Below are positions 545 through 15,468 of a DNA stretch of 37,054 bases, piece after piece. Made by a program: the position numbers and the translations under genes. Source of the DNA: a virus. Every line of letters starts with the position of its first letter. Position 1 is the first letter of the stretch. The stretch lies in the IMG/VR virus record IMGVR_UViG_3300036715_003268, positions 1-37,054 of that record. The stretch is one strand, 5' to 3'. The notes under the pieces are model-generated. The model was not told the origin of the DNA, made no database searches, and saw only the letters and a program-made list of their open reading frames with translations.

Positions 545-572
545 TGGTGCACCCGTAGAGATTCGAACTCCA
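545..572 (-). other. tRNA 3'-end fragment, probable left attachment site (attL)
   Basis: On the minus strand this reads as a complete T arm (stem TGGAG/CTCTA, loop TTCGAAT), then acceptor strand CGGGTGC, discriminator A and CCA. The 5' part of a tRNA that would pair with it (GCACCCG) is not found to the right. A tRNA 3' end without its body, about 125 bases from a tyrosine integrase gene, is the usual form of a phage attachment site. The geometry predicts that the intact tRNA lies at the far right end of the element, outside the window. The exact core length cannot be set without attR. Confidence 0.7.
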
Positions 573-678
573 AATGCCACCCCGAAAAATCCCAGTAAAG
601 ACAAGACAAAATGTTGTTTATTCATGCGTCTTTTCGGTAAATTGCTTTTTCTACTTCTTTCTATTTTTTCTCGTCTTG

Positions 679-699
679 CGTCCCCAATACGTCCCCAAT
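679..699 (+). repeat. 10-bp direct repeat abutting the integrase start
   Basis: CGTCCCCAAT occurs at 679-688 and 690-699, an 11-base period (about one helical turn), the second copy overlapping the integrase start codon. It could be an integrase or excisionase arm site or part of translation control; only the repeat itself is seen. Confidence 0.45.
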
Positions 700-1744
700 G
701 GCTAAATCGAACCTCGCTCAATCTACAAATATCGTCCTACGAAAAAAGGCTTTGTCGTCTGGACAATATCATCTGTTTCTTGACGTGCATCTGAAGGGAA
801 AAAGAACAAAGGAATATCTTCATTTGTACCTGAATGGAAACAAAGATACGGACAAACAAACCCTAGAATTAGCAAAAAAAATTCATGCAAAGAGAGTGCT
901 TGAAATTCAATCGGCGGCGCACGGAGAATTTGACCACAGCAAGACCAACGCTGATTTTATCGTTTTCTTTGAGTCCCTTATCGAAGAAAAAACCAACAAA
1001 AAGGCATATCGAAACACGCTTAATTATCTCAAAAAATTTCGCCCTGTACTGCCATTTCGTGCTATCAACTCCTCCATGCTCGAAGAGTTCAAAAAGCTGC
1101 TTTTGAAGCACGTTTCGCAGAACTCTGCCGGAACCTATTTTAACTGCGTCCGAGCGGCGCTCAATCAAGCAGTAAAACAAGACTTTATCGCTGTCAATCC
1201 AGCGCAAAAAGTCTCCAACATCACCTACCGAAACCCTCAACGACCTTTCCTCACCATTGACGAAATCCGCACTATTTCTGTTGCTGACTGCAAGTATCCT
1301 GAAATTAAGCGGGCATTCCTTTTTTCCTGCTTTACTGGACTGCGACTTTCGGATATACAGCAACTACAATGGGAAGATTTTCAAGCTGGGACAATCGTTT
1401 TCCGCCAGCAAAAGACCCAAGAGCTTCTTTCCTTACCTCTCTCCGAACAAGCGATGTTGTTTTTGGGAGAACCCCAAAAGACAGGACGGGTCTTTCATCT
1501 TGGAATCTCTACCTCAGGCTTGCAAGCATTTATTCCACTTTGGACAAAATCGTTAGGCATCGAAAAGCACGTTACATTCCATACCGCTCGTCATACCTTT
1601 GCCACGCTCGCCTTGACCAGCGACGTAGATATTTACACCGTGTCGAAACTGCTTGGACATACCGACGTGCGACATACCCAGATTTACGCCAAGCTCGTGG
1701 ACGAAAAGAAGCAAAAAGCTATGATGAAAATGCCAACCCTATAA
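698..1744 (+). CDS. int: Tyrosine recombinase / phage integrase
   Basis: A 348-aa site-specific recombinase that would integrate and excise the element at the adjacent attachment site. Order of domains: arm-binding N-terminus (about residues 10-50), SAM-like core-binding domain (about 85-180) and catalytic domain (about 185-335). The catalytic set is visible: R216 in CFTGLRLSDI, K239, H295 and R298 in HTARH, H321 in LLGHTDV and nucleophile Y330. CFTGLRLSDI is typical of Bacteroidota integrases. No clear ribosome binding site precedes the ATG. Its stop overlaps the end of the convergent gene by six bases, so no terminator separates them. Confidence 0.95.
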   Translation: MAKSNLAQSTNIVLRKKALSSGQYHLFLDVHLKGKRTKEYLHLYLNGNKDTDKQTLELAKKIHAKRVLEIQSAAHGEFDHSKTNADFIVFFESLIEEKTNKKAYRNTLNYLKKFRPVLPFRAINSSMLEEFKKLLLKHVSQNSAGTYFNCVRAALNQAVKQDFIAVNPAQKVSNITYRNPQRPFLTIDEIRTISVADCKYPEIKRAFLFSCFTGLRLSDIQQLQWEDFQAGTIVFRQQKTQELLSLPLSEQAMLFLGEPQKTGRVFHLGISTSGLQAFIPLWTKSLGIEKHVTFHTARHTFATLALTSDVDIYTVSKLLGHTDVRHTQIYAKLVDEKKQKAMMKMPTL

Positions 1745-2020
1745 AACGTGTTCCATAATCGGCGAAAAACGTGGCATCAGTGAAAGCCGATAGCCCGTTT
1801 CTTGAAAAATATCTGCTTCTAAATCCCCTGTGAAGTTGATAAAATCTACCTCTTCGTCTTCACTCAAGGGAGCGTGAACGTATAAAAATATATGCTCACT
1901 ATCTTCTGGGCTCCGGCTAATCTCTTGACGCTCAAGAGAAGGAAAGCGCTCTTGTACTTGTTCAAACAGGCGGCTGAGTAATTCCGCCTGTTTATGATTG
2001 ACTTCGGTGTTCGGTCTCAT
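1739..2020 (-). CDS. Small acidic protein, probable partner of the HEPN protein
   Basis: A 93-aa protein, not recognised by family. It is acidic and mixed alpha/beta in look, with DSEHIFLYVHAPLSEDEEVDFINF followed by a C-terminal GYRLSLMP. It overlaps the HEPN gene by four bases (ATGA), which implies coupled translation. HEPN genes often come with a nucleotidyltransferase or other antitoxin; no nucleotidyltransferase GSxxxG-DxD motif is visible, so if this is an antitoxin it is of another kind. A toxin-antitoxin role is inferred from position only. Confidence 0.6.
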   Translation of the reverse strand: MRPNTEVNHKQAELLSRLFEQVQERFPSLERQEISRSPEDSEHIFLYVHAPLSEDEEVDFINFTGDLEADIFQETGYRLSLMPRFSPIMEHVL

Positions 2021-2385
2021 TGAAGTTCCTCTGCTATTTTTGATACAAAATATTCTGCTTTTTTGAGTTGTTCCTTTGCAATTTGCTTGCTTACGCCGCG
2101 CTCTTCATAGTCTGCAAGTGTCCTTGATTTGTGCATTGAGGTCAAGTACCCTTTTAATTCACCACCCAGCTTTTTGGAGCGCTTTATTACCTCGCCGTTA
2201 AACACTGCTTGCACTTTTGCATGGTCGCTCTTAAACTCAAAACCTTTTGCCTGTATGATTGTCGCTGCTGCATGATAGGCAGCGTAATAGGCTCTATTTG
2301 TTGCTGCGTTGAAAAGCGATTGTTCAAACAAGATTTGTGCTGCCTTCAGGTTCTCTTGCGCTCTGTTCCAGAACTCGTTTGTCAT
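2017..2385 (-). CDS. HEPN-domain protein (UPF0332-like)
   Basis: 122 aa, all-helical. The HEPN signature is RAYYAAYHAA: R31 and H38 form the R-x(4-6)-H pair that serves as the RNase active site in many HEPN toxins. The N-terminal WNRAQENLKAAQILFEQ helix and the later SHAKVQAVF-like segment fit the UPF0332 branch. First gene of a two-gene operon, with a promoter and palindromic operator 38 bases upstream (2423-2453), and the XRE regulator gene just beyond. Known HEPN proteins of this type act in toxin-antitoxin or abortive-infection systems; that role here is inference. Confidence 0.8.
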   Translation of the reverse strand: MTNEFWNRAQENLKAAQILFEQSLFNAATNRAYYAAYHAAATIIQAKGFEFKSDHAKVQAVFNGEVIKRSKKLGGELKGYLTSMHKSRTLADYEERGVSKQIAKEQLKKAEYFVSKIAEELQ

Positions 2386-2422
2386 TGTCGTGCCGTTGAT
2401 GTTTGTGTACCTTGAATTGATT

Positions 2423-2453
2423 CAAATATACAATAAATGTATTTTATGTACAA
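2423..2453 (-). promoter_or_regulatory. HEPN operon promoter with embedded palindromic operator
   Basis: On the minus strand: TTG (2453-2451), exactly 20 bases, then TATATTTG (2430-2423), matching the Bacteroidota -33/-7 consensus. The palindrome TACAATAAATGTA (2429-2441) lies between the elements and touches the -7 box. The spacing and operator position are identical to the promoter at 2749-2779, pointing to a common regulator, probably the neighbouring XRE protein. Confidence 0.7.
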
Positions 2454-2462
2454 GAGAAAAAA

Positions 2463-2675
2463 TCAAGCCTCGCCGATTTCTTTAACGTATTCCGGCAAAA
2501 CACCGTATCGCTCCACGTATTTGCATAAACGCTCCGTTTGGCTGGTAATAATGGCTTTGTTGTTCTCCATATTGGACACCATCGTATTCGGATTTGCAAA
2601 GCCCAAAAGCCTACCAAACTGTATTTGTGTCAAACCTAACTTCTTACGCAATTCGCGCATTTCCGTACCTTCCAT
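2463..2675 (-). CDS. XRE-family HTH transcriptional regulator
   Basis: 70 aa from the ATG at 2675, chosen because GGAG stands six bases before it on the minus strand and because the HTH domain begins there; a longer open frame to 2942 has no matching family sequence. MRELRKKLGLTQIQFGRLLGF.NPNTMVSNMENNKA is a standard XRE helix-turn-helix. Palindromes of one type lie before it, before the HEPN operon and before the divergent gene at 2864, so it is the likely repressor of all three. A short stand-alone HTH of this kind is common as a toxin-antitoxin or defence regulator. Confidence 0.85.
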   Translation of the reverse strand: MEGTEMRELRKKLGLTQIQFGRLLGFANPNTMVSNMENNKAIITSQTERLCKYVERYGVLPEYVKEIGEA

Positions 2676-2710
2676 GATGTTCTCCGTTTTGTAGTCAGGA
2701 TGTTTCCGTA

Positions 2711-2741
2711 CAAATATACAAAAAATACAATGAATGTAAAA
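2711..2741 (-). promoter_or_regulatory. Putative promoter of the XRE gene with palindrome
   Basis: Minus-strand -7 box TATATTTG (2718-2711) lies 36 bases before the XRE start. The palindrome TACAATGAATGTA (2726-2738) lies just upstream, nine bases further from the -7 box than in the two neighbouring promoters, and the -33 element is only TTT. This would suit weaker autoregulation. Confidence 0.5.
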
Positions 2742-2748
2742 AAAATAC

Positions 2749-2779
2749 TTGTCAGTTAAATACAATAATTGTATATTTG
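2749..2779 (+). promoter_or_regulatory. Promoter of the 77-aa gene with palindromic operator
   Basis: TTG (2749-2751), 20 bases, TATATTTG (2772-2779). The perfect palindrome ATACAATAATTGTAT (2760-2774) sits between the two boxes, centred five bases from the -7 box exactly as in the HEPN promoter. The last 11 bases (TTGTATATTTG) are the same in all three promoters of this locus. Confidence 0.7.
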
Positions 2780-2792
2780 TGTGCAATAAAGA

Positions 2793-2843
2793 ACGCCGCT
2801 TGACGAGCGACCAACTACTACAAGCGGCGTAATTCCAAAACCT
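2793..2843 (+). promoter_or_regulatory. 5' leader stem-loop followed by AATTCCAAAACCT
   Basis: A 10-bp perfect stem (ACGCCGCTTG 2793-2802 with CAAGCGGCGT 2821-2830), followed directly by AATTCCAAAACCT (2831-2843). The predicted transcription start is about 2786, so the stem is at the very 5' end of the mRNA. The same arrangement stands before the gene at 15061. No U tract follows, so it is not a terminator. Confidence 0.6.
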
Positions 2844-2863
2844 ACATTTCGGAGACTTGCAAT

Positions 2864-3097
2864 ATGCAAACCCCATCGCACATCCACAATGCCAATGTCC
2901 TTGCACAAGCAATGACGCAGCAGAACGTCGCAACAAAGGCACAGGTCGTATCCAGCGCCCTCAACGACTTTTTGAACTTACCGTATGACCAGTTTATTGA
3001 GCCGATTGACACGATGGCACTCTACAAAGCGCAGGAGATTCTGGCGAAATTTAATGCGCGGAAGATGTATGAAGAGCTAGCGAAGCAGCTTGTGTAA
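2864..3097 (+). CDS. Hypothetical 77-aa protein under the XRE-type operator
   Basis: Not recognised. Predicted mainly helical: ATKAQVVSSALNDFL then PYDQFIEPIDTMALYKAQEILAKFNARKMYEELAKQLV. GGAG stands nine bases before the ATG. It is the only plus-strand gene in the cargo block, has its own promoter, operator and structured leader, and is closed by a strong terminator, so it is a self-contained transcription unit. The shared operator ties it to the HEPN pair and XRE regulator. Confidence 0.7.
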   Translation: MQTPSHIHNANVLAQAMTQQNVATKAQVVSSALNDFLNLPYDQFIEPIDTMALYKAQEILAKFNARKMYEELAKQLV

Positions 3098-3100
3098 TCA

Positions 3101-3144
3101 AAATGGAAAGTGCAGCCAAAATTGGCTGCACTTTCCATTTTTTT
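3101..3144 (+). terminator. Rho-independent terminator after the 77-aa gene
   Basis: A 19-bp nearly loopless inverted repeat (AAATGGAAAGTGCAGCCAA and its complement) followed by a T run, four bases after the stop codon. Confidence 0.9.
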
Positions 3145-3241: not shown

Positions 3242-3754
3242 TTATTCAGGACGTTTGAAATTTTCCAAACTTAATATCTCAAACAGTATGTAAAGGCTTC
3301 GTGAGATAGTAGTTAAGATAATAAATATTCCTGCTGCATTGAATTTATGGATTATTTGTACTCCGAAACCATCTGATGTAACCCAGACAGTATAAAGCAT
3401 TGCAAATGAAATGATTAGCTCTATAATCCCAGTTTTGAAAATCTTAACAATAGTAGAATAATGTTTACTGGAAAAAATTAGTTCTAAAGCATTTTCCGCC
3501 TCATTTACCCCTTTTGCATGAAGATTTGACTTAAAAGTAACAATTATTGTTAGAGCAGCGAGCATAAAACCAGCAAGCGAAACGCTTGTTGAAATCAAAC
3601 TGGATAGAATGTTTATCTGGCTTAATTTTTCTGGTATCGGCAACATAAACAATGGAGAATTATGCCAAAATGTAAGCACCGTAGCCACAATAGCTAAATC
3701 AATTATTATTGGTTTAGCTAAGTAAAAATCTGCTAATGTTTTTTTGAGTTTCAT
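3242..3754 (-). CDS. Four-helix membrane protein, partner of the 309-aa gene
   Basis: 170 aa with four predicted membrane segments at about 15-33, 51-73, 107-126 and 140-161; the second reads SLAGFMLAALTIIVTF. A charged loop of about 30 residues lies between helices 2 and 3. It overlaps the upstream 309-aa gene by four bases (ATGA). A soluble sensor-like protein followed by a small membrane protein is a common plan of abortive-infection modules, but I do not recognise the family. The pair is visibly much richer in A+T than the phage core, suggesting separate acquisition. Confidence 0.75.
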   Translation of the reverse strand: MKLKKTLADFYLAKPIIIDLAIVATVLTFWHNSPLFMLPIPEKLSQINILSSLISTSVSLAGFMLAALTIIVTFKSNLHAKGVNEAENALELIFSSKHYSTIVKIFKTGIIELIISFAMLYTVWVTSDGFGVQIIHKFNAAGIFIILTTISRSLYILFEILSLENFKRPE

Positions 3755-4680
3755 AGAAATTTTTTCGATTTTATTTCTAATTGCATTTTCTCAAACATAT
3801 CACTCGAAACAATTGTTCTATAACGCTTTCTTCTTTCAACATGAATTTCACTTTCAACCTTATCAACCAACAGATTAAAAATTTCGAGGCGATTGTAATT
3901 GTCTCTATTTTCTGCTTTTACCTTAAGAGTATTAAAATATCCAACTCTTTTTTTATCCTGAAGTAATTTACTGATTATTTGTAAGATAACAGACTTAATT
4001 GCGCCAGTGGATTCTCGTTTTCTGTAATCAAAATTCAAAGAAATTGTAACATAATCGCTTTGGAAATGCTCTTTTGAAGTTTCTAAGGCGCTATACATAC
4101 CCATATCAATGTCTTGTATTTTAGCAATATTATCTTTGTGAACTTTCGCGATGAATTCTGAACACCTTTGTATCTTATCACGCATTTTAGCTAATTCATC
4201 TTTTAAGATTGGGGTATATTCAATTTCTTTAAGTACCTTTAGGTGTTGACCAACAGTTACGATATACTTAGTGAAATCTTGAATCTTAGCCCCAAACTGA
4301 TTATACTCAATTGCAACTTTGATATTAGGCTTTGAATAATCTATCACAAAATGTGTGGTTTCTAAAATTCCTTCTTTGTCGGATACATCAATATCTCTTA
4401 CTACATCGGTATCTGTATTCATAATCTCAGGCAAAATATTTTTCCTTACACAACGTAATTTTCCTGTGACAAATTTACCAGTTGAATTAAAGGCTATATC
4501 CTGAATAAATATAGATTTCTCGTCTGAAAAGTCTTGATATCTGATTGCGGCACGAGTTTTTGCCAGAGACATAATCTTTGCAAAAAGTTCTCTGAAATGA
4601 TTGCCGTCGCTAGGAGTAAAATCAGGAGCGAAAACAAAGTTAAGTTCGTAGAAATGGATTTTTCTTTTAATTTTTGCCAT
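3751..4680 (-). CDS. Hypothetical 309-aa protein, candidate defence component
   Basis: Not firmly recognised. The N-terminus KRKIHFYELNFVF looks like a beta strand opening a mixed domain, followed by VTGKLRCVRKNILPEI, then HFVIDYSKPNIKVAIEYNQFGAKI, then a helical region (about 150-200) and a C-terminal Lys-rich tail. No nuclease, ATPase or nucleotidyltransferase motif is evident. It resembles in outline the DUF-type first genes of two-gene phage-resistance cassettes, but I cannot name one. Translationally coupled with the membrane protein; AT-rich. Confidence 0.75.
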   Translation of the reverse strand: MAKIKRKIHFYELNFVFAPDFTPSDGNHFRELFAKIMSLAKTRAAIRYQDFSDEKSIFIQDIAFNSTGKFVTGKLRCVRKNILPEIMNTDTDVVRDIDVSDKEGILETTHFVIDYSKPNIKVAIEYNQFGAKIQDFTKYIVTVGQHLKVLKEIEYTPILKDELAKMRDKIQRCSEFIAKVHKDNIAKIQDIDMGMYSALETSKEHFQSDYVTISLNFDYRKRESTGAIKSVILQIISKLLQDKKRVGYFNTLKVKAENRDNYNRLEIFNLLVDKVESEIHVERRKRYRTIVSSDMFEKMQLEIKSKKFL

Positions 4681-4812
4681 AAATCAAAAAGCAAGAAATG
4701 AATTTGTTAATATCCCGTTTTGAAGAGGAAAGGTTTTAGTTCTTAATTAGTCATCAACCGCCAATTTGACATGATACTCAAATAATAAAACTGTTGTTCT
4801 GTGAGTATATCG

Positions 4813-4836
4813 GAGGGCAGCCAATTGGCTACCCTC
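4813..4836. terminator. Hairpin downstream of the small minus-strand gene
   Basis: GAGGG-C-AGCC, loop AATT, GGCT-A-CCCTC: a 9-pair stem with one C/A mismatch, 11 bases past the stop at 4847. No good T tract follows on the minus strand; on the plus strand GCGTTTTATT follows. A terminator for either strand is possible. Confidence 0.4.
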
Positions 4837-4846
4837 TGGCGTTTTA

Positions 4847-5134
4847 TTATTGCCACTCAGAAACTTTGCGACGACGTTTTGAAGTTGTAGGTTTAGGTTT
4901 AGAGAAATGCTCTATACCTAAATCTATCCCCCAACCGATGCCCATTCCAATGAGAAGTCCCCATTGCTGCCCTGTTTGACAGTCTTTGGCATTTTTACTG
5001 CCAGCAACTGCACCAACAAAGCCGAAAAAGCCCGGAAGGGATTTGCTCGCGTTCTGGATTACCTCCGGCTGTATGGAGCATGGACGGTTGTCTGTCGCAA
5101 ACACTTGTGGTAACGTATTTTTTTGTAAATACAT
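4847..5134 (-). CDS. Small protein with a glycine-rich hydrophobic segment
   Basis: 95 aa; not recognised. The C-terminal half has a glycine-zipper-like stretch (LLIGMGIGWGIDLGIEHF, about 60-77) after a first hydrophobic patch (GFFGFVGAVAGS, about 35-46) and ends in a basic tail. The start is uncertain: no signal sequence is encoded in this frame, and the first 10 residues are unlike the rest, so the 5' end may be damaged or the real start may be further in. Probable membrane or cell-envelope association. Confidence 0.4.
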   Translation of the reverse strand: MYLQKNTLPQVFATDNRPCSIQPEVIQNASKSLPGFFGFVGAVAGSKNAKDCQTGQQWGLLIGMGIGWGIDLGIEHFSKPKPTTSKRRRKVSEWQ

Positions 5135-5225
5135 AACTATAAGAGTTTATAAGAGTTTGTAGAAAAATCCTGTGCTTATATTTCATAAAACAGGTTGAAT
5201 TAGTTCCTTCAAGTTTTCAAATGCT

Positions 5226-6287
5226 TCATATTGCCTCTCGCAGCCCAATCTTGTGCCAATCCGCCAAAACAACCATATCCACCAACACCAATTTTCCATT
5301 CCGCGCAGCGCTTTCTCTGGCTTCGCTCGTGAAGGTACTGGTGGTGACGATATAACCGCGATGGGCTTCGTTTTCTTCGATTACGCCTTTGAATTGCTGT
5401 ACGATAGGACGACCTACCGTGTTCTCCGGCGCATTGCGCTTGCATTGTACCACAATCAACCCTTCGGGATGCCGCGCAAAACCGTCCACACCCGCATCGT
5501 TGCTTTGCTTCGTTACCCATGCCGTAAGTCCGGCACTTTGGAAAAATGACATGACGTGCTGCTCAAACTCGTAGGGTTTTAATTGTAGCAGTGCTTGCTG
5601 CAAGGCGGCTTGTTCTTCGGGAACATCGTAACGGTGCGGTGGTGCTGGCTTTTCCGTCATTGCCTTGCGCAAGTCTGCTTTTGTGCGGCGCAATATCTCG
5701 TCGTGGGCTATCATTGCACCGATGAACGCAACATATTCACCAGCGCCCTTGTTCGTCAGCACAGCATCAATCACCGATGTAACGCCCGCAGCGCCCAGAA
5801 ACACCAGCAGCAATGCCGATACACCAATACCTGTTCCAAACCCAACAATGCCGACTCCAGCGCCGCCTATAACCGTAGATGCGGCAAGCGTTACGGGAAT
5901 GGCGATTTTGACGGGGAGAGGGAGATTGCTGTTTTTGTAGTTGTTGAATGCTTCGCCAACGCTGCGACCAAGAGCCAGTGCAGCTTTCTTACCGTCTATC
6001 CGGCTTGAAACAGCACGAAACTTCTCCGCAGCGTTCTGGTCGGAAGCAAGGTCGGTACGCACAGCGGAAAGCCACACCAAAAGTTCTGTGCGGTCTTCTT
6101 CGGTGGAGCAAGATTCAACGGCTTTGACAAATAAGGAAGCTACCCACGCGCGGATTTTATCAACAATGACATTATCCTCCACGACGTTGGAAGCCTTTTC
6201 TTTTGCAGAATCCAACGCACGAGAAGCGCTGCCTTTTAAGCGCTCAAGCGAGGTTTGGGCTTTGACGAGGGCGTTTTTGTTGTCCAT
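5226..6287 (-). CDS. Membrane-anchored Mrr-type restriction endonuclease
   Basis: 353 aa. The C-terminal domain (about 236-345) is an Mrr_cat PD-(D/E)XK nuclease: LKPYEFEQHVMSFF, then D268 in DAGVDGFA and Q281-C-K283 in VVQCKR, the D-QxK active site of this family. In front are a helical region (1-120) and two hydrophobic segments (about 125-150 and 153-176). Mrr nucleases cut modified or foreign DNA; with membrane anchors they would act at the inner face of the membrane, where phage DNA enters. It follows the AbiC-like gene by two bases, so the two are one operon. Nuclease fold is sure; defence role is inference. Confidence 0.85.
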   Translation of the reverse strand: MDNKNALVKAQTSLERLKGSASRALDSAKEKASNVVEDNVIVDKIRAWVASLFVKAVESCSTEEDRTELLVWLSAVRTDLASDQNAAEKFRAVSSRIDGKKAALALGRSVGEAFNNYKNSNLPLPVKIAIPVTLAASTVIGGAGVGIVGFGTGIGVSALLLVFLGAAGVTSVIDAVLTNKGAGEYVAFIGAMIAHDEILRRTKADLRKAMTEKPAPPHRYDVPEEQAALQQALLQLKPYEFEQHVMSFFQSAGLTAWVTKQSNDAGVDGFARHPEGLIVVQCKRNAPENTVGRPIVQQFKGVIEENEAHRGYIVTTSTFTSEARESAARNGKLVLVDMVVLADWHKIGLREAI

Positions 6288-6289
6288 TG

Positions 6290-7252
6290 CTACTCATATT
6301 TTTTTAGTATTGTTTGAATTTGCTCTTCGGCATCTTTAATATATTTATAGTCAGAATCATCTGGAGTCAAAAAGTTGTCAAGCCAGTTTCTACCGCTGAG
6401 GTTGAAAAATTTTGTGTACAAAAACTTCATATAGCTTTGCGCAAACTCAATCTTTTCAGATTGATTTAATTTAGAGTTATCTAGCCGTTGGCACCAGCGC
6501 AATACATTATCTAACAGAACCTTATATTGGTCGATGTAATCATAATCAAGATAAGACCTAAGAGTTTTACGTGGCAAATCCAGTTCCATTTGAAATACCG
6601 TCATCATCATTTCATAAGTCCAGTCCTTTCTGAATGTGTAATCCTTGCTGCCGTCAGGTTCGATTTTAATATCAAATAAGAAGGCTTGATTCTCAGGAGT
6701 AAGGTTTTCACGATTATTAGAAATCAGAGTGTGTAACCTGCCGAGCAATATGCTATTGATGGTATTTGCACCATGGAAGGGTGGTCGGCTTTGAAAACGA
6801 CTAGATTTTATTGAAAGTAATTCTGTTATTTGAGAGTCAAATCGCTCAAATAATCTTAAAAGTATTGTGTATTCATTCTGCTGGAAGAATCGCTCACGCT
6901 CTTCTTCGAGTGCCTGTTTTTGAATTTCATTTTGCTGGAAAAATTGCTCACGTTCCTCTTCGAGCGCTTGTCTCTGCATTTGATTTGCTTTTAACTGCTG
7001 CCGAAAGGCTGCGTAGACGAAAACTCCATTTAGTAACCCAATAATCGGTGCAGTCAAACCGCCAATCATGTCCCCAATTTCATTTGGTTTTAAGTCTGTG
7101 TCAGAAGAACAGCCTTTTGCTATCACGATAATGAAAGGTATCCATGCAAAAAAAAATGCGAAGGAATAAACCAACCAAACAGGCAGACTGGTCATCAATG
7201 TTTGCAAGTCTTTATCCACTTTTTTAGGTGTTTTTTCTGATACGGTTTGCAT
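6290..7252 (-). CDS. Putative phage abortive-infection protein (putAbiC-like)
   Basis: 320 aa. Two membrane helices (about 26-47 and 61-84, the second reading GDMIGGLTAPIIGLLNGVFVYAAF) run directly into a coiled coil, then a helical C-terminal domain starting EYTILLRLFERFDSQ. This plan and the GDM-G...F.YAAFRQQL junction match the family named putative phage abortive infection protein. The coiled coil contains a 17-residue tandem duplication (KQALEEERERFFQQNE type, two copies, about 94-127). First gene of an operon with the membrane Mrr nuclease, which is itself unusual and suggests a sensor-effector pair. Confidence 0.7.
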   Translation of the reverse strand: MQTVSEKTPKKVDKDLQTLMTSLPVWLVYSFAFFFAWIPFIIVIAKGCSSDTDLKPNEIGDMIGGLTAPIIGLLNGVFVYAAFRQQLKANQMQRQALEEEREQFFQQNEIQKQALEEERERFFQQNEYTILLRLFERFDSQITELLSIKSSRFQSRPPFHGANTINSILLGRLHTLISNNRENLTPENQAFLFDIKIEPDGSKDYTFRKDWTYEMMMTVFQMELDLPRKTLRSYLDYDYIDQYKVLLDNVLRWCQRLDNSKLNQSEKIEFAQSYMKFLYTKFFNLSGRNWLDNFLTPDDSDYKYIKDAEEQIQTILKKYE

Positions 7253-7334
7253 CTGTATTTGATTGCTTGTTTTTGATTGTAGTGATTGTTAGCACTACGC
7301 ATTTGTAAGTAGTTTGTACTCAAGCAAGTAGATT

Positions 7335-8291
7335 TTACCTCATTACCGAAATCTTCTCCCGCCATTCAATATTCCCCGCCTTAATAGCCAGAAAAGACGC
7401 TCCGACCGCAATATCCGAAAGCGACAAGCGGATGCTCTGCTCTCCGGCTGTGTGATTGTTCGCATAGATTTCACGACGATTACCAAGCATATCCACAAGC
7501 GCAATGCTGACCATTCCGCCAGCATCCAGACGAAAGTTTACCGTACAATCGCTGCTTGCTGGTTGCGGTGCAATCACGGCACGGGAAATTCCTTTTTGCC
7601 TATCATCGTAAACTGAGGTTCTTACTTTGCGAAGTGAATCCAGAAAGCGCTGGTTTACCGGGTTGTTGGCAATGCCAAATCGTGCTTGGGCAATTGTTCC
7701 GGCTCGGTTGCCGTTGTAATCGGTTGTGTCTCCTTTAAGGTTGCTCGGTACAGCAAAGGGTGTGGTCGTGGCAGTTGCAGTTTGAGAGGTACTTAACAAA
7801 GACACTATTCCTGCGGTATTTGCCGACGCAATTGGTCCGGCACAAAAGGCGTGGACACTGCCCACAGTGCCACTAATAGCTACGTTGGGGCGTTTTATCA
7901 TTACCATATCATCGGCTGCAATGTCAAAACGTCCAGTTTCTATGAAATAGGTGGTATTCTGTAAGCCCACACTTATTACCGTGTCTCCCAACCTTTGCAC
8001 TATTCCATTGGTAAGTGGTAACACCAGAAGCGTTCCCGCAGGAACTCGCTGCCAAAGCGACGTGTTGGCAAAGCGATAACTACCAGAACTCAGAGAATCG
8101 GCGTTGAAGCTATTACTGGATGTAGCAAAATCTCGCAAGATATAGCCACGTAGGTCAAAATTATCTCGTACCACCAGAACTTCAACGGTATCAATGAGGT
8201 TTTGCCCTCCATTGCGGTATTTATTGATGAGAACGTCTTGAGCGAAGATGGGTGACGCGTACAGGAAAACAATGAGGAGAAGTAGGCGCAT
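7335..8291 (-). CDS. Secreted lamin-tail-like protein with T9SS sorting domain
   Basis: 318 aa. Signal peptide MRLLLLIVFLYASPIFA, cleaved before QD. Residues about 20-160 resemble a lamin tail domain (INKYRNGGQNLIDTVEVLVVRDNFDLRGYIL). The last about 80 residues form a type A C-terminal sorting domain: PQPASSDCTVNFRLDAGG, then LVDMLGNRREIY, ending REKISVMR. Such domains direct export by the type IX secretion system, known in Bacteroidota and relatives, so the protein would be at the host cell surface or outside. Stand-alone gene inside the cargo block; lysogenic conversion is one explanation, a carried host gene another. Confidence 0.8.
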   Translation of the reverse strand: MRLLLLIVFLYASPIFAQDVLINKYRNGGQNLIDTVEVLVVRDNFDLRGYILRDFATSSNSFNADSLSSGSYRFANTSLWQRVPAGTLLVLPLTNGIVQRLGDTVISVGLQNTTYFIETGRFDIAADDMVMIKRPNVAISGTVGSVHAFCAGPIASANTAGIVSLLSTSQTATATTTPFAVPSNLKGDTTDYNGNRAGTIAQARFGIANNPVNQRFLDSLRKVRTSVYDDRQKGISRAVIAPQPASSDCTVNFRLDAGGMVSIALVDMLGNRREIYANNHTAGEQSIRLSLSDIAVGASFLAIKAGNIEWREKISVMR

Positions 8292-8343
8292 AATGGGTAA
8301 ATAAACTGAATGGAGAAAATTGGTTGTCGTAATTACTGCTTTT

Positions 8344-9133
8344 CTACTGATTTTTTAGCACTGTACTTACTGCTTCTGGTACTGCACGAAAAAATGAATA
8401 CCCCGTCCTGACTTCAATCTTCGCTACTGTTGTTGTGTATGGCTTCCAGTCATTTATTGCCTGTGCAGTGTTGGGCATCATTACAGCAAGTACCTGTGTT
8501 GTTGTTGTGATATTCGACAATGTTTGACCACGTTCTAATACTACGATGATTTTCCAGCATGAGTCAGGTATTGCCACTTTGTTGTTAATCATCGCATCAG
8601 ACTGAAAGACACCGCCAGAAATGAGGTACAGTTCCTTATTTCCCTGCTTACAGAGGCGCTCACACTCTTCCTCAAGTCTGAGCCAACCCAAACGGTTAAG
8701 TTCGGGTGTTTGCGGAATAATATTGGTCATCAGAAATGTACTCCGATTGTCCTCGTCGTTACGTGTTCGTTCCTCGCTGCGCACAAGATGTCCCCTATCA
8801 AAACCGCTGTTCGTATAATCACCATGAGTGACGCGAACGAAACCAGATGGCAGCGATATATCGGTAATAAAATTACCTGAATAACGCGGCGCATCACCGT
8901 ACCAACTTGCATTGAGATTCCATGATACCCAGTTCGGAACATTTCGCTTATTGTTGTAGCTGAGGGCGAATCATTAGGTAATCGTCTGTACTATCTGCAT
9001 CGCGGGGAATACCTGTTTCAAGATGGATACTGCCGTAGCGCAAAGTGTCTGTGCTTGTTTTAGACGTAGAGGTAACGGTTTGGCAAGCAGAAGTACCAAA
9101 TGTTAGGAAGAGAGCAATAATGAGATATTTCAT
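8344..9133 (-). pseudogene. DNA/RNA non-specific endonuclease (NUC1) lipoprotein, frameshifted
   Basis: Two reading frames together encode one NUC1-family nuclease. The first (9133 to 8948) has a lipoprotein signal (MKYLIIALFLTFGTSAC, lipobox GTSAC) and runs to STDDYLMIRPQ. The second, open from about 8970, begins ALSYNNKRNVPNWVSWNLN, carries the active-site motif DRGH (about 8790) and NIIPQ, and ends at 8344. The frames differ by one. At 8960-8970 the bases TTCGCCCTCAG could encode both sides of the break, and an 11-base loss between two copies of it would restore the frame exactly. Either a slippage mutation or a sequencing error; as read, no full protein is made. Confidence 0.8.
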
Positions 9134-9139
9134 TGGGAT

Positions 9140-9979
9140 TCACCGTAATTTTTCAATCCAGAGTATATTTTTGTCAATATCCAGTATTTGCCTATCAATG
9201 AGCATTTTTTGGTTTTCGTGTGGAAATAACGCTGCTTCTTTCTGCAATCGCAATCGAATACGGCTGCTCCTATCCATGCGTCGAGTAGTGCTGCTTTGAT
9301 AGTATGATGTACCAATTTTAGCATTTCGCTGTCGTGCTTCAACCGAAACAGCCTTCATCTCAAGGGCAACTTCTTTCTTCTCAAGAGCAAGCTCTTTTTT
9401 CATCAACTTCAAATCCTTGATGAGTTCTTTTGCTTCTTGCGGCGTATTGGGCGTAAAGTCTATGGCTAGTTCAAGTGCCTCTCTCGTTTTATCAAGCCGC
9501 TCAATCGTGGTAGCAAGTTTTGAACATAAGGCTAACAAATTTGATTTTTCCGATGAGGTTTGTACTCCCAGAGCTAACTTTGATTCGCAGTCAGATAGGA
9601 TATTGCTTATTTCACTGGAAAGTAGTTCAATCCCCTGCACGTACTTTTCAGCTTTTGAATCCCATCTGTCTATGTCTGCAAAAGTTTCGATGTTTTTCAC
9701 CTCGTGAAGAACCATTTGCATTGAGCTTGCAATGTCAAGTGCTTGTTGATGCTTCTCTAGCATATTCGCCTCCAAAGCGCTAGGAACATAATCTTTCACC
9801 GCTAAAACTGTTGGATTGTTACCTTTCAAACGCACAACCAACTTGTAGGGCAAATAGAATAAAGCCCACGTGATAATCAGCGTGAGCAAGCCAATACCAT
9901 ACTGCCCTGATTGTATTGCGCCTAAAAGTATCATGAAGGCAAGGAGAGAAAACAGTCCAAACCAAATTTTCTTGAGCAT
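9140..9979 (-). CDS. Membrane protein with long coiled coil
   Basis: 279 aa, not recognised. Two membrane helices (about 5-22 and 27-47) are followed by a long helical region rich in E and K (about 70-220, including LMKKELALEKKEVALEMKAV) and a basic RRMDRSSRIRLRLQ segment. It ends six bases before the broken NUC1 gene, so the two were probably one operon. Cytoplasmic coiled coil on a membrane anchor suggests a scaffold or sensor; no enzyme motif is seen. Confidence 0.7.
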   Translation of the reverse strand: MLKKIWFGLFSLLAFMILLGAIQSGQYGIGLLTLIITWALFYLPYKLVVRLKGNNPTVLAVKDYVPSALEANMLEKHQQALDIASSMQMVLHEVKNIETFADIDRWDSKAEKYVQGIELLSSEISNILSDCESKLALGVQTSSEKSNLLALCSKLATTIERLDKTREALELAIDFTPNTPQEAKELIKDLKLMKKELALEKKEVALEMKAVSVEARQRNAKIGTSYYQSSTTRRMDRSSRIRLRLQKEAALFPHENQKMLIDRQILDIDKNILWIEKLR

Positions 9980-10112
9980 AATCCCTGAAAATCAATCTAT
10001 AAGTTTATGGAGATTGCCAGCACCGTGCTATAAGTACATGGTATTATTTGCTTGAAACTCTTTCCAATACCAATTCTGTTCCGTACCGATTTCGATACTA
10101 TGGATTACGTTC

Positions 10113-10502
10113 TCATGCTGCTTGCATCTCCTCTCGGTTTAAGAACGTGTCTTTGTATTTGATGTATCGCTTGTAGCAATAATCGGTCAATTTCATGAAT
10201 CTATCTGCTGCTTGCCCCACCATTTTCTGGTCAGATTGCCAATTGATGCGCTCGTGAAAGCCCATGCTCATAAACTTGGGGTTGCCCATCAAGGTAGACA
10301 TATTGACTAGCGGCTCAGGAAACACATCGGATTCAAATTCGCTTTGAATCCACTCTATGGCTGGCAGCAGCCTTTTTCGCAAACCGTTGTCAAGTGTATT
10401 GTCCGCAATGGCTTGTAGTTTGGTATATCGAAATGGCATTCTGTTTTTATCCGTCAAAATAATCAGCACTTCGATGTAATTGATGTAGTTTTCGACTTTC
10501 AT
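10113..10502 (-). CDS. Hypothetical 129-aa partner of the PD-(D/E)XK protein
   Basis: Not recognised. Helical, soluble, with NRMPFRYTKLQAIADNTL and a C-terminal Lys/Tyr-rich helix (YCYKRYIKYKDTFLNREE). The start overlaps the stop of the nuclease gene by four bases (ATGA), so translation is coupled and a complex or joint function is likely. No signal peptide or membrane segment. Confidence 0.65.
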   Translation of the reverse strand: MKVENYINYIEVLIILTDKNRMPFRYTKLQAIADNTLDNGLRKRLLPAIEWIQSEFESDVFPEPLVNMSTLMGNPKFMSMGFHERINWQSDQKMVGQAADRFMKLTDYCYKRYIKYKDTFLNREEMQAA

Positions 10503-11608
10503 ATTGCTTGCATGGAGTAAGATGGTTTTTTATCATATAACAGCACGGCGGCTGCAAAATCGCGCTTGTGGAGGTATAAGTCGGCTATGCCGCCAATTTC
10601 CTTTTTGAACTCACCTTTGTCGGAGAACAAACCCAAGAATTTTTTGGGATTGTTGAAGTAGAAGCGGCATATCTGCTGGCGGGGATTGCCGTCGAGTAAG
10701 ACGTTGAAGTACGACACGGTGTCTTTGAACTGCACCCGCTCTGGATGCACGATGTCGTGCAAAAGCGTCCGCACGGTGTAGAAGCCTTCCCATTCCTCGA
10801 CGGTAGTGACAATTTCTTTCCCTCCGGCAGCCTGTCCATTCTCGGAAATGGTGCCATTTTGTGAACCCGCTATTTGTGCGGTCTTCAGAACTTGGTGAAC
10901 GCGGCTTTGCACAACGTTTTCAAGTGCCTTTTTCACGATGGAACGCATGATGTCAGCGTTTTTGGTAGTGAATTTTGCGTTCGCATCCGACGCATTGATA
11001 AGTAGTTTTACGAACTCGTCACTGGGGCTGTCAAGCTGCCGGACGAGGTATGCCTTTACGTTTTCTGCGTGCATGAGTTGTGTGGCAGTGCGGGTTACGT
11101 CGTCCACATCGAAGGTCTCGCGGGTGAATTGCGACAATTCTTCAATCATAATCGTCTCCGGCTTGGTGAAATCAACCGTGAAAAATGGTGCACTGTCCAA
11201 TACATTAGGGTTTTCGGTGTCGGTGTAAAAGAGATACCGCACACCATCGGTAAGAATCGCAATCGGGCATGACAAGAGCGTTCCGAAATAGCGGTACAGC
11301 TGCGAAGCATGAGCGCTTTCGAGCTTCGCGCCCGGCATCTTGCACTCAATAATAAACGCGATTTTACCTTTTTTCATCACTGCATAGTCAACCTTTTCCC
11401 CTCGTTTGATGCCCGTGTCGGCAGTAAATTCGGGGATGACTTCGAGTGGATTGAAAATATCCCATCCTAAAACGAATTGCAAGAATGGCAGAACAAGGGC
11501 GTGTTTGGCGGCTTCCTCCGTCTGGCATTTGGAGGAGTATGCTTGGATGTGGGTGACAATACCGTTCACATTCTTCTCAACCTGTTTTTCGACTTCTGCG
11601 CGGGTCAT
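10499..11608 (-). CDS. PD-(D/E)XK nuclease-domain protein (HsdR N-terminal type, COG4748-like)
   Basis: 369 aa. Residues about 30-170 form a restriction-endonuclease fold like that at the N-terminus of type I HsdR: LGWDIFNPLEVIPEF, then EKVDYAVMKKGKIAFIIECK with D74, E88 and K90 as the catalytic set. The C-terminal part (about 180-369) is helical and unrecognised. No helicase domain and no methyltransferase or specificity gene are nearby, so this is not a complete type I system. Operon with the 129-aa gene. A DNA-cleaving defence role is plausible. Confidence 0.75.
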   Translation of the reverse strand: MTRAEVEKQVEKNVNGIVTHIQAYSSKCQTEEAAKHALVLPFLQFVLGWDIFNPLEVIPEFTADTGIKRGEKVDYAVMKKGKIAFIIECKMPGAKLESAHASQLYRYFGTLLSCPIAILTDGVRYLFYTDTENPNVLDSAPFFTVDFTKPETIMIEELSQFTRETFDVDDVTRTATQLMHAENVKAYLVRQLDSPSDEFVKLLINASDANAKFTTKNADIMRSIVKKALENVVQSRVHQVLKTAQIAGSQNGTISENGQAAGGKEIVTTVEEWEGFYTVRTLLHDIVHPERVQFKDTVSYFNVLLDGNPRQQICRFYFNNPKKFLGLFSDKGEFKKEIGGIADLYLHKRDFAAAVLLYDKKPSYSMQAI

Positions 11609-12467: not shown

Positions 12468-12944
12468 TTATTTTCTACGCGCAATGCCGTGATAACGACC
12501 AATCACCACGCCCTTGATTTCTACGGTAGCGTAATCTGCAAATCGAATAGGTTCATAACGAGGGTTTTCCGGCACAAGAATCGGCTCTTGGGACCATAGC
12601 TTTACTTTCAGTCGGTAGGTCTTGACGGTCATTTCGCCGTCAATATCCGCGAGGACAATATCGCCGTCTTGCGCCTCAAGCTGAGAATCAACAAACACAA
12701 GGTCGCCGTTTTCTAAGCCGGCGCCTATCATGGAGTCACCTTTCACCCGAAAAACATAGGTCATTTTTGGGTGCTGCGAAATATAGTCTCCAACAGTTTC
12801 GCGTTCTTCGGGGGGAATATCGTTAAATGATTCTTCGGGCGTACCGCATGGGACACTGCATACAATCGGCATGGAGGCAATATCAAAATCAAGTATTTCC
12901 GCGTTGCCTATTGCTCTACGTTCCTTTTGGGTTTGGTTTTGCAT
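12468..12944 (-). CDS. S24 self-cleaving peptidase, C-terminal half of a split phage repressor
   Basis: 158 aa from the ATG at 12944, preferred over 12980 because AAAGGA stands seven bases before it. LexA/UmuD-type fold: cleavage site C33-G34 (SVPCGTPEE), nucleophile Ser71 in KGDSMIGAGLENGD and Lys108 in EMTVKTYR, 37 residues apart as in UmuD. There is no DNA-binding domain in this protein; it overlaps the end of the upstream HTH gene by 29 bases in another frame. No UmuC follows, so a UmuD role is less likely than a detached repressor domain responding to RecA. Confidence 0.85.
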   Translation of the reverse strand: MQNQTQKERRAIGNAEILDFDIASMPIVCSVPCGTPEESFNDIPPEERETVGDYISQHPKMTYVFRVKGDSMIGAGLENGDLVFVDSQLEAQDGDIVLADIDGEMTVKTYRLKVKLWSQEPILVPENPRYEPIRFADYATVEIKGVVIGRYHGIARRK

Positions 12945-13329
12945 TGGTTTGTCCTTTGATTTTTGTGATAAGAGACTCAAGTGTTTCCAAATCTTCGATG
13001 TCTATAACTCGTTGATTAAACTCCGGCATATCGGAGAGATTACCCACTAACTCTGGTTCGTGTTCTTTGCCTATACCCTGTTTTGCTTTTTTGAGCTTCG
13101 TTCCTGCCTCATTCTTCGCATACATCTCACCTTCACCTGTTAATAGCCAATCTGCACTGATGCCTACTTGCCAAAGCGCCGCTAAAATTTCACCACCTGG
13201 TATGCTGCCTTTTGAAAAATATTGATTCAAGGCATCTGGTCGCTTGCCGATTGCTCTGGCAAGATTTGCTCGTGAACCCTCAAAATGAAGATTCATAGCG
13301 GTTTCTAGCCTTTGTAAAATAACATTCAT
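12916..13329 (-). CDS. HTH DNA-binding half of the phage repressor (CI-like)
   Basis: 137 aa. N-terminal helix-turn-helix: SRANLARAIGKRPDALNQYFSKGSIPGGEILAALWQVGISADWLLTGEGEMY, the usual CI/phage-repressor head in Bacteroidota, followed by a linker and an acidic C-terminus. It reads away from the operator array at 13336-13382 and sits in the standard repressor position against rightward early genes. In related phages this head is normally fused to an S24 domain; here the S24 domain is the next, overlapping gene. Confidence 0.85.
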   Translation of the reverse strand: MNVILQRLETAMNLHFEGSRANLARAIGKRPDALNQYFSKGSIPGGEILAALWQVGISADWLLTGEGEMYAKNEAGTKLKKAKQGIGKEHEPELVGNLSDMPEFNQRVIDIEDLETLESLITKIKGQTNAKPNPKGT

Positions 13330-14917: not shown

Positions 14918-14990
14918 AGCGATATAGTTCAATTGGTAGAACCTCCCCATTTACGGCTGAGGAATGAGAGTTCGAGTCTCTCTATCGCTG
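14918..14990 (+). tRNA. tRNA-like gene with anticodon UUA and a weak anticodon stem
   Basis: 73 bases with a perfect acceptor stem (AGCGATA/TATCGCT), D stem (GTTC/GAAC) and T arm (GAGAG-TTCGAGT-CTCTC). Canonical numbering puts TTA at 34-36 (14951-14953), which would read the ochre codon UAA. The anticodon stem has mismatches at 29-41 and 30-40 and C at position 37, where a purine is usual. It may be a suppressor, a decayed tRNA, or a tRNA-like structure. CCA is not encoded. Confidence 0.6.
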
Positions 14991-14999
14991 CAAACAAAA

Positions 15000-15042
15000 G
15001 CCGCCTGAATACTTGCAATATTCAGGCGGCAATTCCAAACCT
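15000..15042 (+). promoter_or_regulatory. Leader stem-loop followed by AATTCCAAACCT
   Basis: A perfect 12-bp stem (GCCGCCTGAATA 15000-15011 with TATTCAGGCGGC 15019-15030, 7-base loop) followed directly by AATTCCAAACCT (15031-15042), 18 bases before the start codon at 15061. The same order occurs before the gene at 2864. It starts 10 bases after the upstream tRNA, so tRNA 3' processing would leave it at the mRNA 5' end. Confidence 0.6.
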
Positions 15043-15060
15043 TTAGCTGAAAGGTATTCT

Positions 15061-15468
15061 ATGTCTAGTGTTGTAAGAAAAATGACTGCGCAAAACTACA
15101 TCAAGCAGTCAAAATCGAAACTTCGGTTGGTGCGATTCTCGCCGGAACAAGTAAAACTGAACCTTGAGAAAGCACAACGAAAATACTACGATTTGGTGAA
15201 AGATTCAATAGAAATCGAAAGCCATGCCCATCTTTCGGACGAACTCAACGACTGTGTGCGTGGTCTGGGTGAGGTTGCGCTGGTGTATAGCCTCCAGCAG
15301 CGTGGTCATCTTGCGACGGAATTTGAAATGGTGAAAGCTGTCGAAAAGACGAAAGAAGAACTTGACGACTTCCTAAAACGCTTCTTGGAATCTACGAGCG
15401 GTATCATCTTTTCAACGATACCCGAATGTGTTATTGATACCGATACAGAACCATTATTTGTTGAATAG
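15061..15468 (+). CDS. Hypothetical 135-aa helical protein
   Basis: The start at 15061 is chosen because AAAGG stands six bases before it and the leader motif precedes it; the frame extends upstream to 15013 only through the hairpin. Helical: RFSPEQVKLNLEKAQRKYYDLVKDSIEIESHAHLSDELND, then FEMVKAVEKTKEELDDFLKRFLE. Not recognised. It opens the replication gene cluster, after the tRNAs. Confidence 0.6.
   Translation: MSSVVRKMTAQNYIKQSKSKLRLVRFSPEQVKLNLEKAQRKYYDLVKDSIEIESHAHLSDELNDCVRGLGEVALVYSLQQRGHLATEFEMVKAVEKTKEELDDFLKRFLESTSGIIFSTIPECVIDTDTEPLFVE

What the first reader, a model, noticed from the sequence alone, without database searches (positions are those of the whole stretch)
2017..3097. 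HEPN pair, XRE regulator and 77-aa gene tied by identical operator-promoters
The promoters at 2423-2453 (minus) and 2749-2779 (plus) have TTG-N20-TATATTTG with a TACAATnAwTGTA palindrome centred at the same point; a third copy sits before the XRE gene. Four genes thus look like one regulon, a possible toxin system with an unknown 77-aa member on its own structured leader.
Basis: partly seen in the sequence, partly recalled or inferred. Interest (0 to 1): 0.7.

Follow-up and report, generated by a model that had tools for sequence, protein, structure and literature searches.

The report
Phage repressor cassette with new leader RNA
In a virus of Ignavibacteria bacteria, one small repressor appears to control itself, a HEPN toxin-like gene pair and an unrelated small phage gene through one DNA palindrome, and the small phage gene starts with a previously undescribed, evolutionarily conserved RNA hairpin that also sits in front of several other small phage genes.

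Summary
TTG-N20-TATATTTG occurs exactly twice in the window, at the stated sites, each with a TACA-N5-TGTA palindrome in the same register; a third palindrome precedes the XRE gene in a shifted register. A sister prophage in an Ignavibacteria MAG (L005) has the same gene order and keeps all three palindromes; in that 5.7-Mb assembly TACA-N5-TGTATATTTG occurs nowhere else. HEPN genes without the XRE lack it (0 of 19). A small XRE regulon is therefore well supported, though binding is untested.

The "one toxin system" reading is not supported. HEPN plus the ~93-aa protein is its own two-gene family in Ignavibacteria (up to 11 copies per genome, ATGA overlap in 14 of 21), mostly without XRE or p77. 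p77 homologues sit in other prophages without HEPN. Nucleotide identity puts p77 with the phage backbone (95%), not with the XRE-HEPN-p93-int cassette (58-72%).

The leader is more than a p77 feature. A covariance model finds 11 copies in four genomes/records before several unrelated small genes, with a strongly covarying 10-bp hairpin, a TTTCGGAG ribosome-binding segment, and promoters that carry prophage-specific palindromes. Rfam has no match. It looks like a new leader-RNA family of phage accessory genes; its function is inferred.

The parts
1739..2020 (-). p93: 93-aa partner of HEPN; predicted alpha-beta-beta-alpha-beta fold; no named family
   Evidence: ATGA overlap with HEPN; 29-member family, 46% mean column identity; AF2 pLDDT 88; no Pfam family
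2017..2385 (-). HEPN-domain protein, 122 aa (PF05168; invariant R31-x-Y33-Y34, H55, R88-x3-D92-Y93 in 26 homologues)
   Evidence: Pfam E 1.6e-14; alignment A4; PDB relatives 9xbd, 9xbc, 2hsb
2423..2453 (-). HEPN-p93 promoter, TTG-N20-TATATTTG, with operator 2429-2441 (TACA-N5-TGTA) touching the -7 element
   Evidence: arms kept in L005
2463..2675 (-). XRE-family repressor, 70 aa
   Evidence: HTH_3 E 4.8e-7; orthologue 77% identical in L005
2711..2741 (-). XRE promoter (TTT-N20-TATATTTG) with operator 2726-2738, register shifted by 9 bp
2749..2779 (+). p77 promoter, TTG-N20-TATATTTG, with operator 2761-2773 (perfect palindrome TACAATAATTGTA)
2792..2866 (+). leader RNA: 10-bp hairpin 2793-2802/2821-2830, 18-nt loop, then TTCC...TTTCGGAG and the start codon
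   Evidence: covariation in 9 copies; models R1/R2; no Rfam match
2864..3097 (+). p77: small phage protein, function unknown, predicted three helices
   Evidence: 96% identical in L005; 39-43% in three G661 prophage copies; AF2 pLDDT 83; no PDB fold match
3100..3141 (+). p77 terminator: perfect 20-nt inverted repeat
   Evidence: the repeat finder
698..1744 (+). tyrosine integrase next to the cassette; same neighbour in L005 and L052
   Evidence: Phage_integrase 1.7e-20
547..574 (+). probable attachment site: 28 nt identical to the 3' end of a tRNA-Arg(acg) gene of the relative G001

Best explanation
This is an accessory region beside the integrase of a temperate Ignavibacteria phage. It joins two units of different origin through one repressor. 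Unit 1 is an XRE repressor plus a HEPN-p93 pair, a two-gene module that looks like toxin and antitoxin. Unit 2 is p77, a small phage gene that carries its own leader RNA and terminator. I infer that an XRE dimer binds the TACA-N5-TGTA palindromes, two of which touch the -7 promoter element, and so blocks RNA polymerase at its own promoter, the HEPN-p93 promoter and the p77 promoter. The three promoters would be silent in the lysogen and fire together when XRE is missing, as on entry into a new cell or on induction. The p77 leader is a member of a recurrent family of 5' hairpins. I infer that it protects the 5' end of the transcript and keeps or controls access to the ribosome-binding segment, so that such genes can be inserted behind any local operator-promoter. 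Shown: the palindromes, their uniqueness and conservation, the two gene families, the mosaic boundary and the covarying hairpin. Inferred: XRE binding, repression, toxicity and leader function.
For: Palindromes exact at three sites only. In the sister prophage L005 all 24 arm bases are kept (TACAGTAAATGTA, TACAATGACTGTA, TACATTTTTTGTA) while the five inner bases change; the intergenic stretches are 62% and 72% identical. TACA-N5-TGTATATTTG has three matches in the 5.7-Mb G001 assembly, all at this locus, with 0 for the reversed control. No such site and no TAnnTTTG within 150 nt of 19 HEPN genes that lack the XRE. The XRE orthologue is found only beside HEPN in 13 genomes searched; two others are 32-33% hits elsewhere. 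HEPN-p93: ATGA overlap in 14/21 pairs, p93 in 12/391 class genomes, up to 11 copies. p77 block 94-95% identical to L005 like Mrr 92, S24 90, HsdR_N 89, versus XRE 72, HEPN 68, p93 67, int 58. The phage has its own CI/S24-like repressor pair at 12468-13329, so XRE is unlikely to be the master repressor. Leader: covariation score 0.559 against 0.155 shuffled (0/500) and at most 0.108 when slid; 9 of 10 stem pairs changed on both sides.
Against: No binding, expression or toxicity data. The complete four-gene arrangement is known from two loci only; a third (L052) is cut off at p93. The HEPN family has D in place of the catalytic H of Rx4-6H; PMC7641770 found no active RNase motif in PF05168 toxins, although PMC3710099 notes another conserved H that could serve, so toxicity is uncertain. 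The XRE-side palindrome is in another register. The second small stem at the ribosome-binding segment is predicted by folding but hardly covaries. The G001 assembly may be incomplete, and it is not the host of the window.
Confidence: 0.6

Rival explanations
1. The palindromes are bound by something other than XRE, for example a HEPN-p93 complex that represses its own operon as many toxin-antitoxin pairs do, or p77 itself.
For: Type II toxin-antitoxin complexes commonly autoregulate (established knowledge). The operator lies at the HEPN-p93 promoter and at the p77 promoter.
Against: 19 HEPN-p93 pairs without XRE lack the site. p77 copies in other prophages have different palindromes. Only XRE has a recognised DNA-binding domain; p93 is predicted as a small alpha/beta protein and p77 as three helices.
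Confidence: 0.2
2. XRE and p77 form a small CI/Cro-like genetic switch of the phage, and HEPN-p93 is a lysogeny-linked effector of that switch.
For: Divergent promoters with two operators 35 bp apart between XRE and p77. L049 has another HTH-like ORF divergent from a p77 homologue with an inverted repeat between. The cassette is next to int.
Against: A separate CI-like plus S24 repressor lies at 12468-13329 and in the sister prophage. p77 has no detectable DNA-binding family and no helix-turn-helix or ribbon-helix-helix in the model.
Confidence: 0.12
3. All four genes are one toxin system and p77 is a second antitoxin or an accessory toxin part.
For: Shared operator; same four genes in L005. 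The N-terminal half of p77 resembles VapB antitoxins weakly (Pfam E 0.025; the weak profile hits L056 and L058 are VapB-like ORFs followed by PIN-like ORFs).
Against: p77 occurs without HEPN in G661 prophages and HEPN-p93 without p77 in most genomes. Different divergence of the two halves. AF2 gives three helices, no ribbon-helix-helix.
Confidence: 0.08
4. The leader inverted repeat acts as DNA, being a binding site for a dimeric protein rather than an RNA hairpin.
For: Perfect inverted repeats are typical operators.
Against: The stem sequence differs almost completely between copies while pairing is kept (93% of cells paired; 9/10 pairs changed on both sides); the 18-19-nt loop is the more conserved part; the position relative to promoter and start codon is fixed.
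Confidence: 0.1

Closest known systems
HEPN/MNT (HepT/MntA) toxin-antitoxin modules, Class II (PF05168/PF01909)
   Same: PF05168 HEPN protein encoded with a small partner; conserved C-terminal DY; mobile and multi-copy
   Different: Partner p93 lacks the GSX10DXD nucleotidyltransferase motif and shows no profile similarity to 30 MNT proteins from the same genomes (hhalign probability 0.6%); HEPN comes first in the operon, MNT normally does (PMC3710099)
XRE/HTH_3 autorepressors of phage accessory and toxin-antitoxin loci
   Same: Small HTH_3 protein with palindromic operators over its own and neighbouring promoters
   Different: One repressor joins a HEPN pair and an unrelated leader-bearing phage gene
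Phage morons (accessory genes with own promoter and terminator)
   Same: p77 and the other leader genes each have a promoter, a short ORF and often a hairpin terminator, and differ between related phages
   Different: They share a covarying leader hairpin and promoter-embedded, prophage-specific palindromes
Bacteroidota sigma-A promoters (TTTG/TAnnTTTG)
   Same: TTG-N20-TATATTTG
   Different: Nothing; ordinary promoter (PMC6847099). The palindrome is additional
Rfam cis-regulatory leader families
   Same: 5' hairpin plus ribosome-binding segment before an ORF
   Different: No Rfam 15 family reaches threshold; best chance matches E 0.87 and 2.2

Membership tests
HEPN superfamily, PF05168 (HEPN-T) | Match to the PF05168 profile above the curated cut-off | tested here: met
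   54.5 bits against cut-off 22; PDB relatives 9xbd/9xbc/2hsb
HEPN superfamily, PF05168 (HEPN-T) | Catalytic Rx4-6H motif, or the PF05168 variant with D in place of H and a conserved H elsewhere | tested here: inconclusive
   R88-x3-D92-Y93 and H55 invariant in 26 homologues, the variant described in PMC3710099; activity of that variant not established
HEPN/MNT toxin-antitoxin | Partner carries GSX10DXD nucleotidyltransferase motif | tested here: not met
   Motif absent from 29 p93 homologues; no PF01909 hit; hhalign probability 0.6%
HEPN/MNT toxin-antitoxin | Partner adopts the nucleotidyltransferase fold | tested here: inconclusive
   AF2 alpha-beta-beta-alpha-beta; MNT HI0073 (1no5) at Z 5.9, rmsd 3.7 over 80 residues, among many unrelated folds of similar Z
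Two-gene toxin-antitoxin module | Two co-translated small genes conserved as a pair across genomes | tested here: met
   20 further HEPN-p93 pairs, ATGA overlap in 14/21 including the window
Two-gene toxin-antitoxin module | One product toxic, the other neutralises it | not testable with these tools
   needs expression assays
XRE/HTH_3 repressor regulon | HTH_3 domain above cut-off | tested here: met
   30.2 bits against 23
XRE/HTH_3 repressor regulon | Same palindrome at all regulated promoters, conserved in the sister locus and rare elsewhere | tested here: met
XRE/HTH_3 repressor regulon | Protein binds the palindrome and represses | not testable with these tools
   needs EMSA or reporter assays
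VapB-type (ribbon-helix-helix) antitoxin, for p77 | VapB profile above cut-off, ribbon-helix-helix fold and adjacent PIN toxin | tested here: not met
   14.9 bits against 23.4; AF2 three helices; no PIN gene adjacent
Known structured leader RNA (Rfam 15) | Gathering-score match to a family | tested here: not met
   only tRNAs in the window; no leader match
Structured RNA element | Compensatory base changes in the stem beyond controls | tested here: met
   covariation 0.559 against 0.155 shuffled, slid <=0.108; the alignment was fitted to the model, which favours the structure. Hand-placed 10-bp stems of four leaders give 39/40 pairs with 9/10 positions of >=2 pair types

The most novel reading that the evidence does not exclude
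The leader is a new phage regulatory RNA class: a hairpin with a conserved A/C-rich loop that a phage or host factor reads to switch translation of a whole set of unrelated accessory genes by exposing or hiding the TTTCGGAG segment, giving Ignavibacteria phages a plug-in expression cassette whose transcriptional input (a local palindrome) is exchanged from prophage to prophage while the RNA output module stays.
Probability: 0.3. Interest if true: 0.7.

Novelty: new variant of a known kind. Interest (0 to 1): 0.52.

Why it matters
It gives a testable example of how phages wire accessory genes: transcription is set by an exchangeable palindrome built into a standard promoter, while a conserved leader RNA travels with the small ORF. 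The leader family, if confirmed, is a new RNA element and a handle for finding accessory genes in uncultured Bacteroidota-related phages, where most small ORFs have no annotation. The p93 family is an unannotated partner of PF05168 HEPN proteins without the MNT catalytic motif, so it raises the question of how Class II-like HEPN proteins are controlled without AMPylation.

Tried and rejected
p77 as ribbon-helix-helix/VapB: weak profile signal only, model all-helical. p93 as degenerate MNT: considered from its strand-helix-strand pattern; profile comparison gave probability 0.6% and fold matches were a mixed crowd below Z 7, so not claimed. Relatives in phage and plasmid records: none for the DNA or for HEPN; p77 none in plasmids; p93 one 33% hit at E 0.04 in a Streptomyces plasmid. 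IMG/VR scans for p77, p93 and the leader: no relative; a looser leader pattern hit L117, which has the TTCCAAAA-TTTCGGAG segment but no hairpin and is probably chance. HEPN in IMG/VR gave one 27% relative in an unrelated context. A weak R1 match in the window at 14997-15063 (E 0.35) was not counted. Matches of R2 in G238, G518 and G425 (E 0.002-0.009) were not followed and not counted.

Full report
WHAT THE WINDOW IS. The window is an IMG/VR virus record, a fragment that begins inside a RecE-like exonuclease gene and ends in what reads as a portal gene (the portal reading is mine). It carries a tyrosine integrase, a CI-like plus S24-like repressor pair at 12468-13329 and genes that read as replicative helicase and terminase (my reading). 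The nearest relatives are prophages in Ignavibacteria MAGs. A 28-nt stretch at 547-574, just before int, is identical to the 3' end of a tRNA-Arg(acg) gene in the relative G001 and is probably the attachment site.

THE OBSERVATION. TTG-N20-TATATTTG is exact at 2423-2453(-) and 2749-2779(+) only. TACAATNAWTGTA occurs at 2429-2441, 2726-2738 and 2761-2773 only, with 0.32 matches expected at the same stringency. The first and third are in the same register, 5 nt upstream of the -7 element; the XRE-side one is 9 bp further up and its promoter lacks the TTG. TTTG/TAnnTTTG itself is the normal Bacteroidota promoter (PMC6847099).

THE REGULON. L005, from the MAG of Ignavibacteria bacterium Clear-D13, has p77 (reverse), XRE, HEPN, p93 and int (reverse) in the same order. 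All 24 arm bases of the three palindromes are kept while the inner five bases differ; the surrounding intergenic DNA is only 62% and 72% identical. In the 5.7-Mb assembly of that MAG, TACA-N5-TGTATATTTG has three matches, all at this locus, and none in two other genomes. Nineteen HEPN-p93 pairs without the XRE have neither the palindrome nor TAnnTTTG within 150 nt. The XRE orthologue was found only beside HEPN; two 32-33% hits lie elsewhere. An XRE-controlled regulon is the simplest reading; binding itself is not shown.

TWO UNITS, NOT ONE. HEPN-p93: p93 homologues occur in 12 of 391 genomes of the class, up to 11 per genome, most with HEPN directly upstream and with an ATGA overlap in 14 of 21 pairs. 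HEPN is PF05168 with invariant R31, Y33, Y34, H55, R88, D92, Y93, the variant in which D replaces H (PMC3710099); PMC7641770 calls PF05168/PF01909 pairs Class II and saw no RX4H motif in them. p93 is predicted alpha-beta-beta-alpha-beta at pLDDT 88, has no GSX10DXD motif, no Pfam family and no profile similarity to 30 MNT proteins of the same genomes. So the pair works like a toxin-antitoxin module by anatomy but is not a HEPN/MNT member by the tested motif. p77: 96% identical in L005 and 39-43% in three copies in G661 prophages, beside tail genes and with no HEPN in the regions read. None was found in the sampled phylum apart from G001; the profile found only G001 and G661 clearly in the class sample. 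Between the window and L005, p77 and its leader are 94-95% identical, like Mrr 92%, S24 90% and HsdR_N 89%, whereas XRE is 72%, HEPN 68%, p93 67% and int 58%. The break lies at the -7 element of the p77 promoter, so the p77 operator belongs to the XRE side. This indicates mosaic exchange, in which a new repressor cassette took over a resident gene; that history is an inference.

THE LEADER RNA. The p77 leader folds better than 200 shuffles in all five first copies (z -3.3 to -5.1). Hand placement of the stems in four independent leaders gives 10 bp in each, 39 of 40 pairs formed, 9 of 10 positions with two or more pair types, a loop of 18-19 nt, then TTCC-N13/14-GGAG(A)-N7-9-ATG. A covariance model from three copies found the other two and, unexpectedly, copies in front of other ORFs: a 113-aa and an 86-aa ORF at the far end of the G001 prophage, an ORF in G661:C394 and another in G661:C128. 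With nine copies, nine of ten stem pairs change on both sides, covariation 0.559 against 0.155 shuffled (0/500) and at most 0.108 when slid; this alignment was fitted to the model, which favours the structure, so one search is the cleaner test. A second model found two more, in tandem, in G643 (E 2.6e-6 and 0.0044), making 11 copies in four genomes or records. The downstream proteins other than p77 have no confident Pfam match, and two match PHROGs of unknown function. All eight copies with a readable own promoter have TATATTT/G 18-22 nt upstream of the model start; seven have a palindrome that overlaps it, different in different prophages, and in L049 the palindrome lies just upstream (for G643 the palindrome ATACTTAAACGTTTAAGTAT is read from the sequence). 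Shine-Dalgarno-like tetramers precede only 7 of 37 window genes against a background of 8% per position, so the conserved TTTCGGAG is unusual for this genome. Rfam has no match.

MECHANISM. Inferred: XRE represses three promoters; in its absence p77 and HEPN-p93 are expressed together. By the -7 to start distance given in PMC6847099 the transcript would start near 2784, placing the hairpin about 9 nt from the 5' end, a position typical of hairpins that protect mRNA 5' ends. The small UUCC/GGAG stem could hide the ribosome-binding segment, but its pairs hardly vary and the second G643 copy lacks it, so switching is less certain than the hairpin itself.

SHOWN VERSUS INFERRED. Shown: palindromes, uniqueness in the sister assembly, arm conservation, gene families, mosaic pattern, covarying hairpin. 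Inferred: binding, repression, toxicity, neutralisation, leader function. The host of the window and its genome are not available, and the four-gene arrangement is complete in two loci only.

Noticed in passing
window 547-574; L017 1027-1054: Probable att site: 28 nt identical to the 3' end of tRNA-Arg(acg) of G001. In the window both flanks (exonuclease, integrase) read as phage genes, suggesting an excised or virion form; next to the tRNA in G001:C77 lies a 28-codon 3' fragment of p77, perhaps a prophage remnant.
   Followed up: partly
L112 5945-6230 to L005 about 6880 (G001:C106 about 66.0-117.8 kb): Sister prophage of about 52 kb flanked by tRNA-Pro(cgg) sequence, with leader-bearing genes near both ends.
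   Followed up: partly
window 3242-11608: Run of reverse-strand genes between the cassette and the repressor, with an Mrr-type endonuclease (5226-6287) and a gene that reads as an HsdR N-terminal-like protein (10499-11608): a candidate defence island of the phage.
   Followed up: no
G597, G538, G661, G002: Lineage-specific expansion of HEPN-p93 pairs, some in tandem (L034, L040, L023); G597 also has 48 MNT (PF01909) matches.
   Followed up: no
window 14918-14991: ARAGORN reports a tRNA with a four-base anticodon (tacg) next to a tRNA-Met in the phage: possibly a frameshift suppressor tRNA or a degraded gene.
   Followed up: no
L112 6612-6860 and L048 3512-3763: Similar small DNA-binding-like proteins beside leader genes with ATACG...CGTAT palindromes: candidate regulators of those promoters.
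   Followed up: partly
window 4813-4836: Terminator-like inverted repeat GAGGGCAGCCAATTGGCTACCCTC resembling the p77 terminators of L005 and G001:C77, but without a p77 gene before it.
   Followed up: no
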